DNA of 31,888 nucleotides from Saccoglossus kowalevskii (Eukaryota; Hemichordata; Enteropneusta; Harrimaniidae), in contig NW_003130854.1 in the NCBI RefSeq assembly GCF_000003605.2, positions 643,462-675,349 on the forward strand. The letters are read 5' to 3'. The translations under genes and the position numbers were made by a program. This document shows, one piece after another, positions 595 to 23,785 of this stretch. Each line of letters starts with the position of its first letter. Position 1 is the stretch's first letter. The notes beneath the pieces were generated by a model. That model ran no database searches and was not told the origin of the DNA. It saw nothing but the letters and a program-made list of their open reading frames with translations.

Positions 595-800
595 TATAAA
601 ACAAGCTGGTTGGCGATCCGCTCAGCTCAAAAACAAGCAACATCATGTTTTCGGCTGCATGTTTTCCTAGATTTAAGGCATCATTTACAGTTCATTCATA
701 GTTCAAAGTTGCGTTGGGATTACGTTGATACAGTGTAACAATGTTGGCGCCGGCGATCTCTAACCAGTGTGCAACGTAGCTAACAACAAAATATGTGCAC
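595..800 (-). repeat. Dispersed repeat fragment, copy 1 (inverted partner at 21.75-22.09 kb)
   Basis: Read on the minus strand, this segment matches the plus strand at about 21755-21885 and 22055-22090. Shared landmarks are a run encoding YQRNPNATLN and the string GCGGATCGCCAACCAG. Copy 2 carries roughly 160 extra bases between the two landmarks. The minus strand here also keeps two short open stretches: 864-1073, which starts MAHRNEPFMRAAMD, and 692-880, which ends at the shared YQRNPNATLN motif. I do not recognise this protein. The position just downstream of the recombinase remnant suggests the repeat travels with that element, but this is an inference. Confidence 0.65.
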
Positions 801-1191: not shown

Positions 1192-2002
1192 CTATTTTGT
1201 GTTTGCTATGCTGACATTAATTGATCCACTAAAGGTGCAGTTATGGAACAAAGCAGATGCTGCATGTGTACTTTGATTGTGGGTATTAAAAATAGAAGCA
1301 GTGCCAGATTCTGCGGGAGTTGGTCCAGACGCTACTATGCTGGTGTTTTCTTTGGTATAGATGACGTTGTCGGAAACGCCCGCTTCGATCTCTACGGTCA
1401 CTTCTCTATCAGAGGATTTGTTTTTATACCAAAAACTGGGAAACAGGATACAGGACATTTCTTGACTCTGTTTATTTTTGAGTTTGTTGGTGTAAGACCG
1501 AACACTAGCTTCGTTTTTATGTGCCGTGAAATACGTAATGTGTCTGGTTTCAACTCCTGCCGAATCTAACACAGTGCACGCAGTTGCCCTAACATAATGA
1601 TGTGTATGAATTGTCAACAAATTTGCTGCTATCGAAATCTCTTTCATCATAGATCCCAATTTATTTTCATGAATACCAGACTGTGTCAGTAGGTGTTACA
1701 TTTACACGGGTCCCCTGAAACAACCCATTTTGCAATTTGGACATATACATTTTGAAATGCTGCAACGGGACAATTTTCGCCGCCGGTAGCATACATTTTA
1801 TTTTAGCCTGTGTTTCGAAATCGTCAAGGTAAATTTCATTAAAATTGGCAAAGCGTTCCTTTCTTTCCGTCTGGACGAATTCTCCGGTTTCTGCAAGAAA
1901 ATCTTGCTCTGACAGCTCCCGAACATGATACTCGGCCATGTCTGTTGCAGACAACGAAAACATGTCGCAAAGAATAACATGCAAAAATTGTAGGTTGTAC
2001 AA
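1192..2002 (-). pseudogene. Crypton-like tyrosine recombinase, decayed
   Basis: The C-terminal half (1192-1659) carries the catalytic signature of tyrosine recombinases of the invertebrate Crypton/KIAA1958-like type. The box THHYVRAT supplies the H-x-x-R pair, and AHKNEASVRSY supplies the next histidine and the nucleophilic tyrosine nine residues later, the spacing seen in the superfamily. The preceding KLGSMMKEIS, readable from about 1674 in the same frame, also fits the family. The N-terminal half (1667-2002) includes ERKERFANFNEIYLDDFE, resembling the N-terminal DNA-binding region of these proteins. The two halves lie in different frames, and the central part holding the first catalytic arginine is missing, so the gene is broken. 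The function would have been DNA strand exchange during transposition. Alternatives such as DIRS-type recombinase are possible; the YR assignment itself is firm. Confidence 0.83.
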
Positions 2003-2261
2003 TTTTTTTATTTAACCACTGCCAAAAAAATATATATGTATAATATCTTCATGCTATCAATATTACCCCCAAAATTTTCCTAATATTTAAATGCCCTTCC
2101 CATTATTTGTTTACGCATTAAACTTGTATTCATATTCTGGGGCTTTATTTGGAACACCATAACTGTGCATTATGCTCTATTTAACCATGGCTTGCATAAA
2201 TTAAAACAGTCTACCAAACAATCACAATGATGCATTGATGGCAGTGATACACTCCTATAAT

Positions 2262-2345: not shown

Positions 2346-2654
2346 GAAAACAAGTTACTGCGCATGCTTTGTCACCAAATACATCTTCTCTTTGTGATGT
2401 TCCTCCATCAAATTAAACAGCTTTTGGCTCCCATATTAGTCACTGCAGCTAGCACTTTGTCTTGTGTTGAAATTATGTCTAATTTAGATATTATGATTGT
2501 ATATACATTTGAAATTTTATTTAGTACTAAGGGTGTATGCTGGAGGACTATAAAAATCTTCAAAATGGCGACACGTTTTGCATTCCGTCTCTGTTTGTTG
2601 TTATTCTCTATTACTTCTCTATTCTCCATGTAATTTATTTTGAAATTTTACCAT

Positions 2655-2966
2655 TTATACTTTGCTTATTTCATTGAGACAATTATCACATGTTTTGTCA
2701 TCAGAAATGATATCATGCCATAACCTTTGTTGTCTGGAAAACGCTTTATATTTCTCTTCTTTTTCTGATCTCAATGACACAAGAAGTTTTTCTTTTGTCC
2801 AAATTTGATTTATTGGGATTTGAGGTAGTTGGTTGTGTCTAACAACTTCACTAACATTTGAAGCAGCTGGATAGCTAGTGGTGTTGCTGCATCAGATGAT
2901 AATATTGTTGGAGTCGGTATTGTTACTTCTTCCTTGGATGCAGCCAACACCTGATTCACAGTTCAT
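2655..2966 (-). pseudogene. Myb/SANT-like DNA-binding exon with one in-frame TGA
   Basis: On the minus strand a clean 3' splice site (TTTCAACAG) is followed directly by ATG at 2966. The frame runs 103 codons to a TAA at 2655-2657, with a single internal TGA at 2892-2894 (codon 25). Residues 54-103 read as a Myb/SANT-like (trihelix/MADF-type) domain: WTKEKLLVSLRSEKEE near residue 56, a spacer, then RLWHDI with the second conserved tryptophan at about residue 83, then CDNCLNEISKV. The frame stops where the third helix aromatic would be expected; adding one base would restore a Y-K-W reading, so a frameshift is likely. Such proteins bind DNA and are often derived from transposons. The three upstream cassettes at 3.2-4.3 kb could supply 5' leader exons to this acceptor. 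Confidence 0.6.
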
Positions 2967-3176
2967 CTGTTGAAATATAAAATAAAGTTAATCTTATTTT
3001 ATATATAAGCCATTAATATACATCAAATGCAAAAACTTTGATCTGTTTTAACTTAGGACAATGCAGTGAGTATGAAATGTAATTTTGTCACTAAACATGA
3101 TAATGCAGACATGAATACATCAATCTGTTGTTGTTATTTCAGACATTTTATATCTCACCTAATTATCTCTATAAGC

Positions 3177-3356
3177 TAAAGTGAAGGCAGAGTCTTACCT
3201 TTCTTTGATTGTACTTGGGTGAGAATATCCTCACGTCAGGTTGAGTATCTGAACAAACTAGTGAAGGCACGGTAGCTAAGGGTTGCGCTATTTCCCAGAT
3301 TCAGATCAGACGACCGAAGTTCCTGGATGTTGGAGAATGGGAACTTCGGTACCTGT
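3177..3356 (-). repeat. Triplicated cassette, copy A (lacks TATA segment)
   Basis: First of three direct copies; nearly identical to copy B from TAAAGTGAAGGCAGAG through GGTACCTGT. On the minus strand it ends in a strong 5' splice site, AAAG|GTAAGA, with the junction at 3199/3198. It holds an 11-bp hairpin (3314-3324 with 3339-3349). Unlike B and C it lacks the TATA-containing segment; instead, minus-strand sequence TACTTTTAACAG abuts the GTACCG that starts the conserved part, so copy A could act as an internal exon. There is no ATG in the would-be exon. Confidence 0.85.
3314..3349. other. Conserved stem-loop, copy A
   Basis: The arms CCGAAGTTCCT and GGGAACTTCGG enclose a 14-nt loop. The only change from copy B creates a T-G wobble if the plus strand is transcribed, but a C-A mismatch if the minus strand is. 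Confidence 0.75.
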
Positions 3357-3569
3357 TAAAAGTACGTAAAATCAATAAATAACATTAACAATGTTTTAAA
3401 AAATACTCCCTAAACAAAGTTCTCGCGCTAGAATGTGCGAAAAACGCAATTCGTCTATCGCATGACGATCGACTCTAACTCGCGACTATGAGACAACTTT
3501 CCACCAACCCTTTTTGTTTGAAGGGTTAAAAATCAAAAACACAGGCACGAAAGTTGCTCGCAGCGCCAG

Positions 3570-3796
3570 TAAAGTGAAGGCAGAGTCTTACCTTTCTTTG
3601 ATTGTACTTGGGTGAGAATATCCTCACGTCAGATTGAGTATCTGAACGAACTAGTGAAGGCACGGTAGCTAAGGCTTGCGCTATTTCCCAGATTCAGATC
3701 AGACGACCGAAGTTCCCGGATGTTGGAGAATGGGAACTTCGGTACCTGTCGGGATCTTTCGGCGATACGTCAATCACATCGGCCATTTATACTACA
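3570..3796 (-). promoter_or_regulatory. Triplicated cassette, copy B: putative promoter plus leader exon
   Basis: Read on the minus strand this copy has, in order: a TATA box (TATAAA, plus-strand 3786-3791), a CRE-like half site TGACGT, a perfect 11-bp stem-loop starting about 45 nt after the TATA box, about 120 nt of leader without any ATG, and a strong splice donor AAAG|GTAAGA (junction 3592/3591). That is the layout of a TATA promoter with a short non-coding first exon, and the next acceptor-ATG pair on this strand is at 2966. The TATA segment is identical in copy C over more than 30 bp. The promoter role is inferred from motif order and conservation. Confidence 0.5.
3707..3742. other. Perfect stem-loop, copy B
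   Basis: CCGAAGTTCCC pairs with GGGAACTTCGG, 11 of 11 bases, around a 14-nt loop. It could be an RNA hairpin in a 5' leader or a dyad binding site in DNA. Confidence 0.85.
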
Positions 3797-4048
3797 AAGC
3801 CAACAAATCTATCTGCTATCCATTTTTGATAAGACCACTGTATTGCCTTGGTGATTAATTTACAGTATTTTTCTAATACTCATTACACTTTATCCCGTGA
3901 GCAGTATTTTTGGACACCAGAGTTAGGCAATAAAAAATGTCACCCTGCTGTTCTTGTACTTTAATACATGACAAATGAAATGTCAGCCATTTTGAGTCAA
4001 ATTTCAAGGAGTGTGGCTACAATTTTCTTACTTTGATTCTTACAAAAA
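3797..4048. other. Spacer between cassette copies B and C
   Basis: AT-rich sequence with no recognised gene. It differs from the A-B spacer, which argues that the cassettes were copied as defined units or that the spacers diverged faster. Confidence 0.4.
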
Positions 4049-4273
4049 TAAAGTGAAGGCAGAGTCTTACCTTTGTTATAACTTCCTTTCGGTGAGTACG
4101 CACACATCAGGTGAATATCTAAAGCGATTCTAAGAGATGGTAGCCAAAGCATACACTAAGTTCTTTAGGTTCAGTTCAGACTACTGAAGTTCCCAGATGT
4201 TGGAAAGTGCGAACTTCGGTAACTGTCGGGAGCCTTCGTCGATACGTCAATCACATCGGCCATTTATACTACA
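4049..4273 (-). promoter_or_regulatory. Triplicated cassette, copy C: diverged putative promoter plus leader exon
   Basis: The oldest-looking copy. Its two ends are the best conserved: the donor side AAAG|GTAAGACTCTGCC (minus strand, junction 4071/4070) and the TATA side (TATAAA, plus-strand 4263-4268), where more than 30 bp match copy B exactly. The middle is diverged except for the stem-loop. Preferential conservation of the TATA segment and splice donor is what one expects if both were functional. The leader here does contain ATG triplets. Confidence 0.5.
4184..4219. other. Stem-loop, copy C
   Basis: CTGAAGTTCCC and GCGAACTTCGG form the same hairpin with one T-G wobble (in plus sense) and one C-C mismatch, although flanking sequence has diverged. 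Confidence 0.65.
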
Positions 4274-4607
4274 CAAATGTCCATTTCAGGATAACAACAG
4301 AAACCAAATACACAAATGTGAAGGGTGGCATTTAACAGGCACTAGAATATGTATTCACATTAGTATTGGAATGTACATGAAGTCAAAATGATACAACATT
4401 TTCTTTTCTTTTTAGGCAAAAATGTGCAATATTATAAATTTCACTCCCACTTTTTACTAATCATGTGTAGACCACTGAGCACCTGTATTGTAATATAATT
4501 TGCAAAACTGCTACATGCATTTCCATATGCATTATTTTCTACCCAAAAAATACAGTTAATGTGTTACCTAGAATGTATTTTTTATCATGGAATCAAATGG
4601 TACTTAC

Positions 4608-5999: not shown

Positions 6000-7300
6000 T
6001 GTAAGTAACACTAAATTCTAAATGACGGACTTCCTGGCAAGTTGTAACCCTCTTCAATGCGCTTCCTATATTTTTCTTTTTTTGGTGTGGTAAAACTACT
6101 TTCAACCAATTCCTATAAGGAAAGGTCACTTGGCTGTGGTGTGTCAGTATGGTCTTCAGTGTTTTCTGCTGCGAATGTCACTGAAGGCTTAAGGAGCGTG
6201 TCGCTTATCTTCGATCTATCAATGGGATATATTCCTCTTTTCACGAAACCATCTGATATGTTTTTGGGGCTGGCGCTTTCATCCAAGCTTGTCGAATAAT
6301 ATTCTTCTTTTCCAGGGTTGGTTGTAATATATTCCTTTATACAGCATGCTCCCATGCCTTTTTCAATGGAGAAAATAAACACACATCAAGAGGTTGCAGA
6401 AAGTGAGAAGCATTTGGGAGCAGTCTAGTCTGTAAAGCAATATATTATGGTCTCAAGCTACTTTGAATGTCTCCATGTCAATGTGTGACTCGTGACCATC
6501 AAACAACAGAGCAACTGGTCTTGTGGGTGGCAAGATTGGAATCAAGTGGTTGGCAAACCAAGAATAGAATGCCTCAGAATCCATCCAACCGCTCTCTGTA
6601 AAATAGCAAATTGATCCTCTGTTGCACCTGCTATTGGGTTCCAGGACTTGGGGGGGGGGGGGGGCGTTTCATTGGGAAAGGGTAGTTCAGTGGGATTGAA
6701 CCACCAGCTGCATTCACTGTAGTAAGAGCAGTTATTTGGCCTTGGTTACTTGCCACAATCTGAGGAAAATTACTCTTTGCTGGCCCCAGTACCTTGCCAG
6801 TCTTCACTCAAAAAAGCGAAAAACCACTCATCACAGTTCCAAATACATGGCGGTTTATCCAACGAATCATGGTCAAATCACGGAACCAGGCATCTACTTG
6901 CTCCTTCGACACTTTCGCACGCTTCATGTCCAGTTTTCTGGTGTTGACCATCTTCACTTGAGGATTGCGCTTGATGAATTGCCGGTACCATTTGTTGCCG
7001 GGTAGATTTCGTGGGTCCTTCTTACTAGTGTCAAGACTCTTTCTAACTGTGTACAGTAGTTGTTCCTCTGTCACTCCAAAGCCTCTTTCTGCCATTCCAA
7101 TAATCCAGTCAGCAAGCTGACTCTCTTTTTCTGTAGTAAGAAAAGGGGGTGGTCCACCATGTTTGCCAAACTGTGTTCTTCCGGAAACACGGTCTCCAAG
7201 TATGGATCTCTTTATTTCCCATTTTGCTGCTGCCTTCCTGATCGACATCTTGTTTTTCGGTCACATCAATGAAGGCTTTCTCTAATGCAGTTCTAGACAT
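6000..7300 (-). pseudogene. pogo/Tigger-type transposase (Tc1/mariner superfamily), frameshifted
   Basis: From ATG near 7300 the frame begins MSRTALEKAF, then shifts into the helix-turn-helix region MSIRKAAAKWEIKRSIL (from 7248), followed by the CENP-B-type second HTH with RGFGVTEEQLL and NKWYRQFIKRNP. The DDE/DDD catalytic domain follows in several frames: IWNCDE (6827-6844, first aspartate), DGHESH (6483-6500, second) and LQPLDV (6380-6400, third). The C-terminal signatures GFVKRGIYPI and KYRKRIEEGY (6043-6072) are also present. A run of 15 G (6650-6664) interrupts the middle. All three catalytic aspartates are still readable, but at least four frame changes and stops make it a pseudogene. 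No terminal inverted repeats were identified. Confidence 0.9.
6650..6664 (+). repeat. Poly-G tract (15)
   Basis: A homopolymer of 15 G inside the pogo pseudogene; expansion or an assembly length error here would shift the reading frame. Similar tracts lie at 15820, 16191, 16668 (poly-C) and 31515. Confidence 0.95.
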
Positions 7301-7599
7301 TTTTGAATTACTCTAGAATAACAATAAAAGGTCAGATAATAGGAATTGTGTTAATTTAATATCTGCTCATAACCTTTTCGCTGGGTTTAGTATAAATTGA
7401 AGAAAATACACAGCAAAGTAAACAAAGAAAAAGGGAGAGTTACATCAGAACCAGAAACTAATCTTTTCATTAGCCTAAAGAATGACCCTTATTGTATAAT
7501 AATAGGGTTATCATAAAAATGGCACAACGTATTAGGAGTTAGTTGATACAATTGCTGTCCTGCTTTAATGAACATTTGGTATTCTTATGATAATATCAG

Positions 7600-8460
7600 A
7601 AAACAATTCTCACCTGGTAAAACACTTGAAAATACTGAAAACAATAAGAGCAGTTAATGAGCTTATGTAATTATAATCAGGTGGATGTGGGTTTTGTTAA
7701 AGGGGAACAGCTCAATCCCATAGATTGCACCAAAGGATCATGGGACACTATTGTTTAATGTTGTTTACAAAGTTTATCTATCTTTTGTTATCCATTGTAA
7801 TTTTGTTGTGAGATTAGGCTTAATTGGAAGTGCCCCTTTTAGACATCAATGGGATTTTTGAAAAGGTACAGGAGTTTTCATAGCAACAAATATTTAATAG
7901 TATTAGAAAAAGTGACAAAACTACTCACCTGATAAAAAAAACTTACTTGATAAAAAAAGATACTGAAAAACAATTAAAAGGTTAATTAGCCTATTTAGTT
8001 ACAACAAGATTTTGATTTGAATTTATAATACAAATGAACAAAAATTCTCACCTGAACAAAAAACTTGAAAATACTTTATGGGGAAAAAGCATGCCGAAAA
8101 ACAATAAGAAAAAAATTCTCACCTGAATAAAAAGGCTTTAGATAAAAAAAAATAGGTAATAAATTATGCTCAGACATCTACAGCAGTTTCTATAGCAACA
8201 AATAAAATTAGCAATAAATTATAATTCTGACAAACGGAAATTCTCACCTGAATAAAAAGATACAAAAAATCTGAAAAAAAAATAAAAAAATTAATATTAG
8301 CTAATGGGATTATAATAGGGGGGATGTTGGAAATTAAGTAATACATTTTGTGCTCAGACATCTACAGCAGTTTCCATAGCAACAAATAAAATGTTATATA
8401 TAATTAGCAAAAAATTTTAATTCTGATAAATACAAATTCTCACCTGAATAAAAGGCTTCA
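7600..8460 (-). repeat. Degenerate tandem array of AG|GTGAG splice-like motifs
   Basis: Six sites read on the minus strand as a pyrimidine-rich or AT-rich run, then CAG|GTGAG. The junctions are at 7613/7614, 7928/7929, 8051/8052, 8122/8123, 8247/8248 and 8443/8444; typical sequence is TTTTTATTCAG|GTGAGAATTT. Part of the array repeats more broadly: GCTCAGACATCTACAGCAG occurs at about 8167 and 8352 (185 bp apart), and TCATAGCAACAAAT-like strings occur at 7877, 8190 and 8377. The array is AT-rich and lies upstream (minus sense) of the pogo pseudogene. It may be a simple diverged satellite, or each unit may carry a 3'/5' splice pair. Confidence 0.7.
7700..7838. mobile_element. 139-bp MITE with TTA target duplication, PIF/Harbinger-type
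   Basis: The ends AAGGGGAACA and (reverse complement) AAGGGGCACT form short terminal inverted repeats, flanked by TTA at 7697-7699 and TTA at 7839-7841. A 3-bp TWA target site with G-rich ends is the pattern of PIF/Harbinger elements. No coding capacity. The TIR is short and imperfect, so the assignment is moderate. Confidence 0.5.
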
Positions 8461-8665
8461 AAATACTTTCAAAAAACTAGATGTTTGGATAATAATTTCT
8501 GAAAAACAAAATAATCAACATTTGTCAGTAAATTCTAGATACGGAATGATAAATGCTCATAAACTTCATGTCAGTATAGTAAAAGATGTACTTCCAAATG
8601 CACAGCTTAAAATGCTAAGAAAATTCATAGATAAAGAAAGGAATGAAACAAATAAAATGTTCTAA
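8407..8665 (+). CDS. Candidate exon, unidentified, ends in TAA
   Basis: A plus-strand frame opens after a TAG near 8404 and runs 86 codons without a stop to TAA at about 8663. The second half is convincingly protein-like: SRYGMINAHKLHVSIVKDVL then QLKMLRKFIDKERNETNK. The first half overlaps the last unit of the splice-motif array and is less convincing; the real exon may begin after CATTTGTCAG near 8527. No known domain recognised. It probably belongs with the next exon at 8704. Confidence 0.4.
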
Positions 8666-17000: not shown

Positions 17001-17876
17001 CTGTTTTTGTATTTTGAATCATGAAAATGTTACAAAGAGCTGCACCTGGGTGGTTTCATTGCAGCCGAGTTATAGGATGTAACTGACCTCCCACAATAGC
17101 AGAATCTGTGTCTCTACAGAAGTCTGTGCCATCCTACATGCAGCAGCTTCTAGACAATGTAGAAGATGTTACAGGCCATCTTACTCAGTGGTAATCCATC
17201 ATGGTTTCACAGATGACCTGCACTTGAGGGGAATTGACTTGATATGCCTATAAATAATGCACTATGAGTGAGTGCCTCTTTCTTGCATCTTGAATTGAAT
17301 ACTTTTACATAACTTCCTAGGTAGTCAAGGCGGAGGAAAACACTTAATTCTGCTGTCTGTAGAAGTTAAAAACGTATTTTTGTTCAGTTATAGTTATCGT
17401 ATGAAACCTATATACCAGTTTTTGTTTTGTATATTTATTTGTGAAAATAAAAAAATACCATACCTTACTCATCGAGAACTTATCTTTACCGACTCTCAAC
17501 AGCTTGGAATAGTCTTTTCGGCTTCTGTCAAAGGGTACACCGATATTGTTGGTTCCATCACAAACAACTATTACATTCTTCAGCCATTCTCAGTAGCGAG
17601 TCACCATATAGCATGACTAATTGTTCAAAATATAAAAAAAAAATATTATTGTCATAATTTATGCAATATGATATATTCAAGTTTAATATTCCCATTACGA
17701 GTGATAGTTGCATCACAATGTTATGAGTGCACCAGTCAGAGAGTTGGATTTGAAATAAGAAAAAAAAAATCAAATGGTTATGTGTATGTTATAAACCATC
17801 ATGCCTGGTGCTACTGGTCTATACTTTTCATAATGAATCATTGCAATTTCATATATTTGACCATGATTGTGATAGG
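17001..17876 (+). repeat. Tandem segmental duplication, unit 1
   Basis: Unit of about 876 bp. Shared landmarks with unit 2 include ATGTTACAAAGAGCT, TTCATTGCAGC, GCAGCAGCTTCTAGACAA, CACAGATGACCTGCACTTGA, AAGTTAAAAACG, ACACCGATATTGTTGGTTC and GCATCACAATGTTA. No coding function recognised. The divergence is substantial, so the duplication is not recent. Confidence 0.85.
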
Positions 17877-19105
17877 CTGTTTTGGTATTTTAAATCAGGC
17901 AAATGTTACAAAGAGCTACACCTGGGTGGCTTCATTGCAGCTGAGTTAGAGGGTGCAACTGACCTTACACCACTCAGAGGAAGCCGAAAAGTATAGCAGA
18001 ATCTGTTAAAGACAGTGTCCCGACATATGTATGTCTTATCCTAAATGCAGCAGCTTCTAGACAACATAGAGGATGTTGCAGCGCATACTTACTCAGGTGT
18101 AATAAATCATGGCTCCACAGATGACCTGCACTTGATATGCCAATAAGATACACCGTGAGTGAGTGTCTTTTCTTTAAATCTTAAATTCTTTTACAGAACT
18201 TCCTCGGTAGTCAAGGTGGGAGACAATACTTACTACTGCTATCTGTATAAGTTAAAAACGCATTCCTGTTTATTTTTGATAATTTTGTTCGATAATCAAG
18301 GCGGGAACTGTACTTACTACTACTGCTATCTAAAAGTTAAAATGCCAATTTACATCTCACGGTATCCCAACAGAGTTTTCTTGAAGAAGCCCTATTTCTA
18401 GGGCGAAACGTTGGAATAAACATCACAGAACTGACCAGGTGTATTGTCGTGACAATCCTTGTGTTATTTGCATAAAAGTTAAAAACGTATTCTTGTTTAA
18501 TTACATTCTTTGTCATACATATTAAAAAAATGAAGTAGAAACATTCACAGTATGGAATTAAACATAATTAGACACACAAGTTTTATACATTTATTTGTGA
18601 AGATCAAAAAAAATGCATTCCCTTACTCACAAGCAACTTCTCTTTATCCACTTTCAACAGCTTAAAATGGCTCTCTGGCTTCTATCAAATGGAACACCGA
18701 TATTGTTGGTTCAGCACTATCTAAGCTGTTGAGATGGCATAGAAAACATCACTTCCTGGCTGATACCGTGATATTGACCACCAGGGGTGCAGTTCACTCC
18801 AAGTGTGATCCCACTTTTGGAAGGTAATGTGGCATCACCTTACACAGCCATTTCCAGTAGCGAGTTACCATAAAGCTGTTGACAACAATATTATTTTCAT
18901 AATTTATGCTATATGATAAATATTTTAATAGCCATTAGTCGCATCACAATGTTAAGAGTGCACCAATCAGACAGTGGGATTTGAAATCAGAAGAAAACAA
19001 TTCAAATAGTCATACCATATTTATATATACAGTAGTTCATATATATTATCAAGCCTGTGCTACTGGTCTGCACGTTTTTTAATGAGTTGTGGTGATTGCA
19101 ATAGC
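17877..19105 (+). repeat. Tandem segmental duplication, unit 2
   Basis: Second copy in the same orientation, about 1.23 kb. It is longer than unit 1 because of two insertions: roughly 18260-18480 (an inner repeat of the AAGTTAAAA segment plus a hammerhead-like fold) and roughly 18720-18835. The end, CTACTGGTCTGCA near 19060, corresponds to the end of unit 1 near 17811. Confidence 0.85.
18367..18414 (+). ncRNA. Degenerate hammerhead-ribozyme-like fold
   Basis: CCAAC (18367-18371) can pair with GTTGG (18410-18414) as stem III. Stem II is GCCC/GGGC (18389-18392 with 18401-18404), closing an 8-nt loop and followed by GAAA, as in the hammerhead core. The expected CUGAUGA core is present only as TTGAAGA, two changes off, and no clear GUC-type cleavage site follows stem III. 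Stem I is minimal. Hammerheads are known in Penelope-like elements and other repeats, so this is probably an inactive relic carried on an inserted repeat. Confidence 0.4.
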
Positions 19106-21659: not shown

Positions 21660-21754
21660 ACCGATTCAACTATTTAAGACAGGAATTTGACTGATTTTTG
21701 AATACTTCCCCGCTAAATGTATTACCTCCTACCAGTGCTCAAATGATCATGCTT

Positions 21755-22090
21755 TTTATTTTAGCCACGTTGCGCACTGACCGGTAATCTCGGGTGCCGA
21801 CATTGTTGCACTGTATCAACGTAATCCCAATGCAACTTTGAATGAACTGTAAATGCTGCGTTCAGTCTAGAAAATACTATCGCAAAACATGTGGAAATAA
21901 TACATTTAACAGCAGAATACGCCCTTGTAAAGTGAAGTGACTTCTAAAGACTGAATGTTTCTTGCAAACTTTGTATACGGGGCCAGTTTTAGTTATAAAC
22001 CGACGTTTAGCTTCATGTTTATGTCCTACCATATGACAACAGCCGAACAAATTATGGTTGTTTTTTGAGCGGATCGCCAACCAGACTACC
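21755..22090 (+). repeat. Dispersed repeat fragment, copy 2
   Basis: Plus-strand partner of the repeat at 595-800, sharing the YQRNPNATLN-encoding stretch near 21810-21850 and GCGGATCGCCAACCAG near 22069. About 160 bases between them are absent from copy 1. On the minus strand the extra part reads HKHEAKRRFITKTGPVYK, of unknown origin. Confidence 0.65.
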
Positions 22091-22156
22091 AGATTGTTTT
22101 TGTTAGCAAGGACCATGAATGTTACTATTTCAATATATCTTTAGAACAGTGTATAA

Positions 22157-23769
22157 AGGGAGAGTAGGAAATCAAACGGGCGGTTCACCGCGGTACACCG
22201 TGGAGAGCCGCAGACTGCTTATAATTAGGGGTCTCTACCGCGGTGGCCACCGGTACCGGTTGCAACCGCGGTCGTAGGACAGATGTGAAATACGTACTTA
22301 ACAGTTTCCTTTGTGATTCCATGAGTCTTTGTTTCAAATAGCTGTTTTTATATCGAGAAGATTACGAGCATCGCTGGCATGGAAATACTAAGCATATGGT
22401 AATACTATCGGCATGTATTTTATTAATATAAAAATCCATAAGTCCAATGCTGTATACGAATTGTTGTTGCGTGAAACAATGTTGTATTTTATGCATGTAT
22501 TATCACCCATTCCAAGAGTAAAAGTCGTAACTTTCGAAGGTACAAGTATTATGACTCGATTTTTTGAACAAATGTTAAGTATACACTATATCGTTTTGCG
22601 TCAAACTGGGTGGCCCGAATTTAAATGTCAGTGCGTGAACTCATTGAGGTCATTGCCCCCCACGTAATTCAAACACGTGGTTATTAGAGTTCAGTCGAAA
22701 TGTACGCGAATAATGCGATCGAAGTGCGCTGCGAGTTTATTTTAGAAAAAATTACCATTACGCGTGATATTGTATGGTTAATATTTCGTATAAAATAATT
22801 CGCCGATGAGTCACAGTTATTTAAATTATTTTCAAGTCGGTTAGTGTCCCAACAATAATAAAAATAACTTAGCAATGTATTGCATTTACTAAGTTGAAAT
22901 ATTTAGAGCCCGTGCAATACTGTAAACATATTTGCGTTATTAGAAAAGCAGCACACAAAGTAAACGGTGTTGAAATCTTCAAAGCCAATACAGAGTTGGA
23001 TACAAGTTGTGTTATTACAGTACCGCTGGATATGATAACAAATTTACGAGATCGAAGCGCGGACCAAGAAAGAAACGGGCTGTTAAGGTAACGCGCCAGT
23101 TCAGTGCGTGACTTGGGGGTCAAACTTCGGTCAACACACACTTGATGTCAGCATCGGCGCGTAGCAAGTTTCGCAACGTACTTGAAGTTCAATTGTGCCC
23201 CAAAATTATGTCGACGATCACTCAATTGTCGCAGCGCATGTTGTACCAAGTCCATGATACACCCCGTTTCAACTTCGGCTTGCTTTTCCTTCTTAGTGCA
23301 TGTTCTTGTTCACGTAAATGCGACCTCTCTCACCAATGTATTAAAACACTTTGAAGTTATACTTATGCGTGATTATATTTGGTCTACGCGAAACATTAAC
23401 CTTTCTAAACATTTTCTGAGACCATACATGATATATATTCACAAAATAATGCGATCATATTTTATATTATGTTGATCTCTACGTCTTTCTGGATCGTTTT
23501 GTGATTTTATTCCAAAGCTCAGGCAAATAAAATAATGTCAACTATTATAGACTAGTTTCCTAGCTTTTGGCTCAGCCAAATTAGTTTAATTTTTCATTAG
23601 AACTTTGTGACCTTTTTAATTTCCCAGTTCTTTGTGTTCATTAATGGTCTTGACAATAAGTGTGAATTGCTATGCATAAATTTGCATAAAATGTAGTCGA
23701 CCGGCGAGCACCCACCACCACCGCGGTAATGACCGCGGTGCACCGCCCGCTTGATTTCCTACTCTCCCT
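22157..23769. mobile_element. PIF/Harbinger-type TIR element, probably non-autonomous, 1613 bp
   Basis: The left end AGGGAGAGTAGGAAATCAA and the reverse complement of the right end match for about 40 bp with few changes. A TAA duplication flanks the element (22154-22156 and 23770-23772). Just inside the ends lie five copies of the palindrome ACCGCGGT (22187, 22237, 22265, 23720, 23732; start positions), the kind of subterminal motif a transposase could bind. A 3-bp TAA target and an A/G-rich terminus fit PIF/Harbinger. The interior has only short frames (for example 22894-23091 plus and 22869-23141 minus) without a recognisable transposase or Myb partner, so it is probably mobilised in trans. 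Confidence 0.82.
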
Positions 23770-23785
23770 TAAGTGAGTATTTTCG

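What the first reader, a model, noticed from the sequence alone, without database searches (positions are those of the whole stretch)
3177..4273. Triplicated promoter plus leader-exon cassette with a conserved hairpin
Seen: three direct copies. Copies B and C each carry on the minus strand a TATAAA box, a hairpin about 45 nt later, and a consensus splice donor AAAG|GTAAGA. The segments best kept between old copy C and copy B are exactly the TATA side and the donor side. Copy B has no ATG between the putative start and the donor, and the next minus-strand acceptor is followed directly by an ATG (2966) of a Myb/SANT-like frame. Inference: tandem duplication of an alternative promoter/first exon. 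Copy A lost the promoter part and may serve as an internal exon.
Basis: partly seen in the sequence, partly recalled or inferred. Interest (0 to 1): 0.72.

Follow-up and report, generated by a model that had tools for sequence, protein, structure and literature searches.

The report
Retrotransposon remnant and old solo LTR
The three repeated 'promoter cassettes' look like ends of a mobile genetic element (an LTR retrotransposon): two belong to one partly deleted insertion and the third is an older stray end, so this is ordinary genomic debris rather than a gene's triplicated promoter.

Summary
In detail: three direct copies (A 3177-3356, B 3570-3796, C 4049-4273) with TATA (B, C), hairpin and AAAG|GTAAGA on the minus strand. 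The interpretation mostly does not. The units are long terminal repeats (LTRs) of a Gypsy-order LTR retrotransposon, read on the minus strand. A and B are the two LTRs of ONE insertion: it is flanked by a 4-bp target-site duplication (AAGC, + strand), B is followed after 1 nt by a tRNA-Ser-type primer-binding site, and the 213 nt between A and B is the element's 5' leader. About 6 kb, with the polypurine tract and the first 47 nt of the 3' LTR, is deleted, which is why A 'lost the promoter'. C is an older solo LTR. The genome holds at least 23 places of the unit on 13 contigs, among them a ~6.7-kb LTR-bounded copy with Gypsy protein domains and solo LTRs with perfect 4-bp duplications. The supposed downstream Myb/SANT gene is not supported. 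Open: a splice donor in U5 is kept in 12 of 13 aligned copies, so these LTRs could act as portable promoter plus first exon; no RNA data were available.

The parts
3177..3796 (-). One internally deleted LTR-retrotransposon insertion (B = 5' LTR, leader, A = truncated 3' LTR), 620 nt
   Evidence: AAGC on both sides; spacer matches the 5' leader of the ~6.7-kb copy on C3427. Weaker support: 33 CpG in 620 nt against CpG-poor neighbours, though 66 of 3033 windows of this size reach 33
3570..3796 (-). Copy B: complete 5' LTR, TGTAGT...ACTTTA
   Evidence: TGTAGT start and ACTTTA end in 9 of the 10 other near-full-length copies; the exception L005 has AGTAAT and ATTTTA
3785..3791 (-). TATA box of U3 (TATAAAT)
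   Evidence: Identical in all 12 aligned rows that hold this part
3706..3743 (-). Hairpin in the presumed R/leader region (12-bp arms 3732-3743 and 3706-3717)
   Evidence: 12 of 12 pairs in B; second arm largely or wholly deleted in L011 and L012, four pairs broken in L003, one or two in five further rows; no pair changed on both sides
3586..3595 (-). Splice-donor-like AAAG|GTAAGA in U5 (last exon base 3592)
   Evidence: Kept in 12 of 13 aligned LTR rows; L003 has GC
3555..3568 (-). Primer-binding site TGGCGCTGCGAGCA, 1 nt after the LTR end
   Evidence: Same letters after the LTR in L006, L007, L010; 13 of 14 nt complementary to human tRNA-Ser-UGA
3357..3569 (-). 5' internal leader of the element (the A-B 'spacer')
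   Evidence: B plus leader match L025 at 87% over 444 columns, to 3367; after a short indel the remaining nucleotides continue to the junction (read)
3355..3356 (-). Deletion junction (2-nt overlap AC); ~6 kb incl. polypurine tract and first 47 nt of the 3' LTR missing
   Evidence: Leader ...TTTTAAC and LTR ...CGACAGG meet here (read); size from the coordinates
3177..3356 (-). Copy A: 3' LTR lacking its first 47 nt
   Evidence: 97.8% to B over 180 nt
3173..3176 (.). Target-site duplication, left copy (AAGC)
   Evidence: 152 of 30602 random blocks of equal length in the window match 4/4
3797..3800 (.). Target-site duplication, right copy (AAGC)
4049..4273 (-). Copy C: older solo LTR, same ends and TATA
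   Evidence: 78.9% to B; 84.3 and 84.7% to L011 and L012; no PBS or PPT beside it; flanking tetramers TTTG/TTTT, 3 of 4

Best explanation
The three units are LTRs of a Ty3/Gypsy-order LTR retrotransposon on the minus strand. A and B are the 3' and 5' LTRs of one insertion at a 4-bp target (AAGC on the + strand). Between them survives only the first ~213 nt of the internal region (primer-binding site and leader); a later deletion of about 6 kb removed the genes, the polypurine tract and the first 47 nt (U3 with TATA) of the 3' LTR. C is an older solo LTR of the same family that landed nearby. How it worked when intact: TATA in U3 drove transcription into R (with the hairpin), a tRNA-Ser primed reverse transcription at the site just past U5, and the element's integrase inserted the copy, making the 4-bp duplication. 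Shown here: LTR borders, duplications, primer site, purine tract in relatives, leader homology, protein domains in one relative, dispersal. Inferred: promoter activity, tRNA-Ser use, R/U5 limits, order of events.
For: 23 places of the unit on 13 contigs of the 572-Mb genome, 3 of them the window copies. Perfect 4-bp duplications at 5 of the 7 insertions with both outer ends known: window block GCTT (sense), L002 ATAT, L012 CATT, pair L006/L005 GTAT, pair L010/L008 CTAT; the other two, L003 and window C, match 3 of 4; chance about 0.5% per block, measured in this window. CTGGCGCTGCGAGCA directly after the LTR in window B, L006, L007, L010; purine-rich GACGGAGGAGAG (L008, L009), GACTGAGGAGAG (L011) or GACGGAGGAG (L005) directly before the LTR. 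The C3427 copy (LTRs 97.8% identical, ~6.7 kb) has, in sense order, HHH_3, zf-CCHC, aspartyl protease, RT_RNaseH, Integrase_H2C2: RNase H before integrase is the Gypsy order (recalled). The window leader aligns to that copy from the primer site to the junction. The human tRNA-Ser-UGA 3' end was seen in passages of PMC11096365 and PMC12217144.
Against: The window insertion has no polypurine tract and a truncated 3' LTR, so its LTR status rests on B, the duplication, and relatives. C and L003 have only 3-of-4 duplications. The LTR 3' end is TTTA rather than the usual CA (recalled). The tRNA-Ser genes of this genome could not be looked up (searches not answered), and one of 14 positions differs from human tRNA-Ser-UGA. 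No AATAAA, ATTAAA or AGTAAA in the LTRs. The RT palm domain was not matched in the 8 of 14 listed frames scanned. The CpG contrast is not unique in the window (66 of 3033 windows as rich).
Confidence: 0.97

Rival explanations
1. Tandem duplication of an alternative promoter/first exon of a downstream minus-strand Myb/SANT-like gene.
For: TATA, leader and donor are in the right order, and an acceptor-like CAG precedes ATG 2966.
Against: The spacers are unrelated, whereas tandem duplication would be expected to repeat them; the unit is dispersed with insertion duplications; the ATG frame stops after 24 codons; no Pfam support for the frame.
Confidence: 0.02
2. A terminal-repeat retrotransposon in miniature (TRIM), i.e. 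a small non-autonomous family that moves as a ~620-bp unit.
For: Length under 1 kb, 227-nt LTR, primer site next to the LTR, 4-bp duplication; TRIMs with tandem and solo repeats are known in bivalves (PMC6934838, first of five parts and passages read).
Against: No polypurine tract and a 3' LTR lacking U3, so the unit is unlikely to have inserted in this form; B plus leader are 87% identical to the corresponding part of a ~6.7-kb coding relative.
Confidence: 0.02
3. An LTR of this family co-opted as promoter and leader exon for a nearby transcript (compatible with the best explanation).
For: TATA kept in 12 of 12 rows and donor in 12 of 13; solo LTRs do this for ta-TRIM in Echinococcus (PMC4558846, passages).
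Against: The same conservation is expected from selection on the element itself. Downstream on this strand the pieces scanned gave no Pfam match above cut-off; the nearest is a recombinase-like frame at 1192-1695 just below it, likely another mobile element. No RNA data.
Confidence: 0.06

Closest known systems
Ty3/Gypsy LTR retrotransposons (e.g. those surveyed in mollusc genomes, PMC6238403, seen in a search listing only)
   Same: LTRs, tRNA primer site, purine tract, short duplication, protease-RNase H-integrase order in a relative
   Different: The window copy has lost its genes; clade not determined; a helix-hairpin-helix frame lies in the gag position of one relative
biv-TRIM of bivalves (PMC6934838)
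   Same: 202-218-bp terminal repeats there, 227 nt here; solo repeats and tandem arrangements
   Different: No canonical primer site could be identified in biv-TRIM; its purine tract is GGGGAGA and its interior 77-80 bp. Here the primer site is clear, the interior is 213 nt and a coding relative exists. Sequences not compared
Helenus/Ajax TRIMs (PMC10886601, passages)
   Same: Animal Helenus makes 4-bp duplications and bivalve Helenus uses tRNA-Ser among other primers
   Different: No tRNA or 5S match in this LTR by Rfam up to E 10, no tRNA by ARAGORN
ta-TRIM solo LTRs of Echinococcus (PMC4558846, passages)
   Same: Solo LTRs whose promoter could start transcripts spliced into neighbouring sequence
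   Different: Expression shown there, not tested here; sequences not compared

Membership tests
LTR retrotransposon, Ty3/Gypsy order | Direct LTRs with fixed ends flanking an interior | tested here: met
   (relatives with two full LTRs; in the window the 3' LTR is truncated)
LTR retrotransposon, Ty3/Gypsy order | Short target-site duplication | tested here: met
   5 of 7 insertions 4/4, 2 of 7 3/4
LTR retrotransposon, Ty3/Gypsy order | tRNA primer-binding site after the 5' LTR | tested here: met
   Window B, L006, L007, L010; 13 of 14 nt as in human tRNA-Ser-UGA; the genome's own tRNA not seen
LTR retrotransposon, Ty3/Gypsy order | Polypurine tract before the 3' LTR | tested here: met
   In relatives L005, L008, L009, L011; absent in the window copy, where this part is deleted
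LTR retrotransposon, Ty3/Gypsy order | Protease, RT, RNase H, then integrase | tested here: inconclusive
   Protease, RNase H and integrase zinc domain in this order in L024, but the RT palm was not matched in the frames scanned
TRIM | Small unit complete with primer site, polypurine tract and two LTRs | tested here: not met
   No polypurine tract, 3' LTR lacks 47 nt
Helenus | tRNA-like sequence in the LTR | tested here: not met
   Rfam E up to 10 on 3100-4350, ARAGORN; one loose box A/B pair on the minus strand of B, none in C, but 110 and 115 such pairs occur per strand of the window
Alternative promoter/first exon of a host gene | Capped 5' ends and splice junctions into a gene | not testable with these tools
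   No RNA data

The most novel reading that the evidence does not exclude
This Gypsy family keeps a strong splice donor inside the U5 of its LTR (17-column block 99% identical on average among 12 rows, within the top 3 of 216 sliding blocks), upstream of the primer site, so each solo LTR is a ready-made mobile promoter plus first exon, and some copies, perhaps C or B here, start spliced host transcripts.
Probability: 0.15. Interest if true: 0.35.

Novelty: new member of a known kind. Interest (0 to 1): 0.12.

Why it matters
It shows how an LTR, read without knowing it is one, looks exactly like a promoter with a leader exon, and how a single deleted insertion plus a solo LTR can mimic a triplicated cassette. 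If the U5 donor is used, the family would be a source of portable first exons, as reported for ta-TRIM (PMC4558846, passages).

Tried and rejected
Terminal-inverted-repeat (MITE) reading: the ends of B and C are no more similar as inverted repeats than shuffles (p 0.60-0.98).

Structured RNA gene: no Rfam match at gathering for the window; up to E 10 on 3100-4350 only SNORA38 at E 0.76 (18 bits, cut-off 60). The hairpin as a conserved RNA element: second arm lost in 2 and four pairs broken in 1 of 13 rows, one or two pairs broken in 5 more, no two-sided changes.

SINE or Helenus-type internal Pol III promoter: loose box A/B pairs are common in the window (110 and 115 per strand), so the one in B carries no weight.

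Public collections: exact 22-mer of the donor end in viral contigs, 0 hits; relatives of the ORF 1192-1695 in viral contigs, 5 pattern hits, none confirmed; tRNA-Ser-end pattern in viral contigs, 0 hits.

Myb/SANT gene: no Pfam support in three pieces. Paper searches gave nothing used.

Not finished: own-genome searches for the A-B spacer, the tRNA-Ser end (57, 63, 65, 68, 71, 74) and window 2620-2966 (62, 66, 72) did not complete, so whether that last stretch is itself a repeat is unknown.

Full report
Observation. The three direct copies are real: A 3177-3356, B 3570-3796, C 4049-4273, all in the same orientation. A/B are 97.8% identical over 180 nt, B/C 78.9% over 232 columns. The donor decamer occurs nowhere else in the window, while TATAAA is common (40 on the minus strand). 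The hairpin is clear in B but weak in C on the minus strand; C folds better on the + strand.

First hint against a promoter duplication. All three copies share exactly the same end (minus strand ...CACTTTA), B and C share exactly the same start (TGTAGTATAAA...), and the spacers between and around them are unrelated. Tandem duplication would be expected to repeat spacer too. The block A-spacer-B is CpG-rich in a CpG-poor neighbourhood, although 66 of 3033 windows of its size have as many CpG, so this is weak support. On the + strand the whole block is flanked by AAGC on both sides; 152 of 30602 random blocks of the same length in this window match 4/4. One base past the end of B begins TGGCGCTGCGAGCA, complementary at 13 of 14 positions to the 3' end of human tRNA-Ser-UGA including CCA (tRNA sequence seen in passages of PMC11096365, and PMC12217144). 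This is the layout of an LTR followed by a primer-binding site.

Test in the genome. The own-genome search was answered once: 23 places on 13 contigs (a lower bound), 3 of them the window copies. Of the other 20, ten are near full length (214-230 nt) and ten are partial (39-187 nt); the partial ones were used only in the border listing. Ends and flanks: L006, L007 and L010 are followed by the same primer site; L005, L008, L009 and L011 are preceded by a purine tract (GACGGAGGAGAG or variants); L002, L003 and L012 have neither and look like solo LTRs. Of 7 insertions whose two outer borders are known, 5 have a perfect 4-bp duplication (window block, L002, L012, L006/L005, L010/L008) and 2 match at 3 of 4 (L003 and window C). 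For L007, L009 and L011 one outer border is not known, so they were not counted. The L007 primer site runs on to TGGCGCTGCGAGCAGGGT, 17 of 18 nt as in human tRNA-Ser-UGA (comparing by eye).

What the element encodes. For the C3427 copy (LTRs 97.8% identical) 14 frames of at least 90 codons were listed in L024/L025; I scanned 8, all on the element's sense strand. Five match Pfam above cut-off: helix-hairpin-helix HHH_3 (27.1 bits against 27), zf-CCHC, aspartyl protease, RT_RNaseH, Integrase_H2C2; three match nothing, and no RT palm was matched. In sense order protease precedes RNase H, which precedes the integrase zinc domain, the order of Ty3/Gypsy (recalled). The frames are separate, so this copy is probably broken. 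The C2355 region has three LTRs (L010, L007, L008) with the CTAT duplication on the outer two, and a long run of N inside; its frames were not scanned.

What happened in the window. B and the following leader align to L025 at 87% over 444 columns, to window position 3367; beyond a short indel the leader continues as TTTTACGTACTTTT(T)AAC in both, and then the window jumps to position 48 of the LTR, the two sides sharing only AC (read). So the 213-nt spacer is the 5' leader, and a deletion of about 6 kb (by the coordinates of the C3427 copy) removed the genes, the polypurine tract and the first 47 nt of the 3' LTR. That explains without exaptation why copy A 'lost the promoter'. A/B differ at 4 of 180 sites, so the insertion is probably younger than C, which is 79% identical to B and 84.3 and 84.7% to L011 and L012.

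The gene claim. ATG 2966 opens a 24-codon frame.

Conserved pieces. In the 12 rows that reach it TATAAAT is invariant; the donor is kept in 12 of 13 rows (L003 has GC); the 17-column donor block is 99% identical on average, within the top 3 of 216 sliding blocks. The rows are not independent: several come from one element. Selection on the element (U3 promoter, U5/integrase end) can explain the ends; whether the donor is spliced is unknown. The hairpin shows no two-sided changes, is largely or wholly lost in L011 and L012, and has broken pairs in six more rows.

Verdict. An ordinary Gypsy-type LTR retrotransposon family: one internally deleted insertion and one solo LTR. It works like a promoter plus leader because LTRs do. 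It is not a TRIM by test (no polypurine tract, truncated 3' LTR), nor Helenus (no tRNA found in the LTR). Whether the family is already named in a repeat library could not be checked.

Noticed in passing
window 1192-1695 (-), with 1667-2011 (-): Tyrosine-recombinase-like ORF (Pfam Phage_integrase E 1.9e-5, 25 bits against a cut-off of 27.1); resembles Crypton-type recombinases (recalled).
   Followed up: partly
window 6808-7260 (-): Tc5-type transposase DNA-binding domain (E 4.2e-6), a pogo/Tigger-like fossil (name recalled).
   Followed up: no
window 22156-22194 and 23732-23770: 39-nt inverted repeat, 95% complementary, 1.5 kb apart: possible ends of a DNA transposon.
   Followed up: no
window 663-791 and 21753-21874: About 130 nt repeated in inverted orientation 21 kb apart, 81-85%: dispersed repeat.
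   Followed up: no
window 7585-8476: Repeated unit with TTCTCACCTG (minus strand CAGGTGAGA, a strong donor-like motif at 7614, 8052, 8123, 8248, 8444).
   Followed up: no
window 17001-19100: Divergent direct duplication with spacings of about 0.9-1.3 kb.
   Followed up: no
L025:1400-1825 (-): Helix-hairpin-helix motif (HHH_3, just above cut-off) in the gag position of the related element.
   Followed up: no
L026/L027 (C2355:28977-35871): Three-LTR arrangement of the same family, outer LTRs 99.6% identical with CTAT on both sides, long N run inside.
   Followed up: partly
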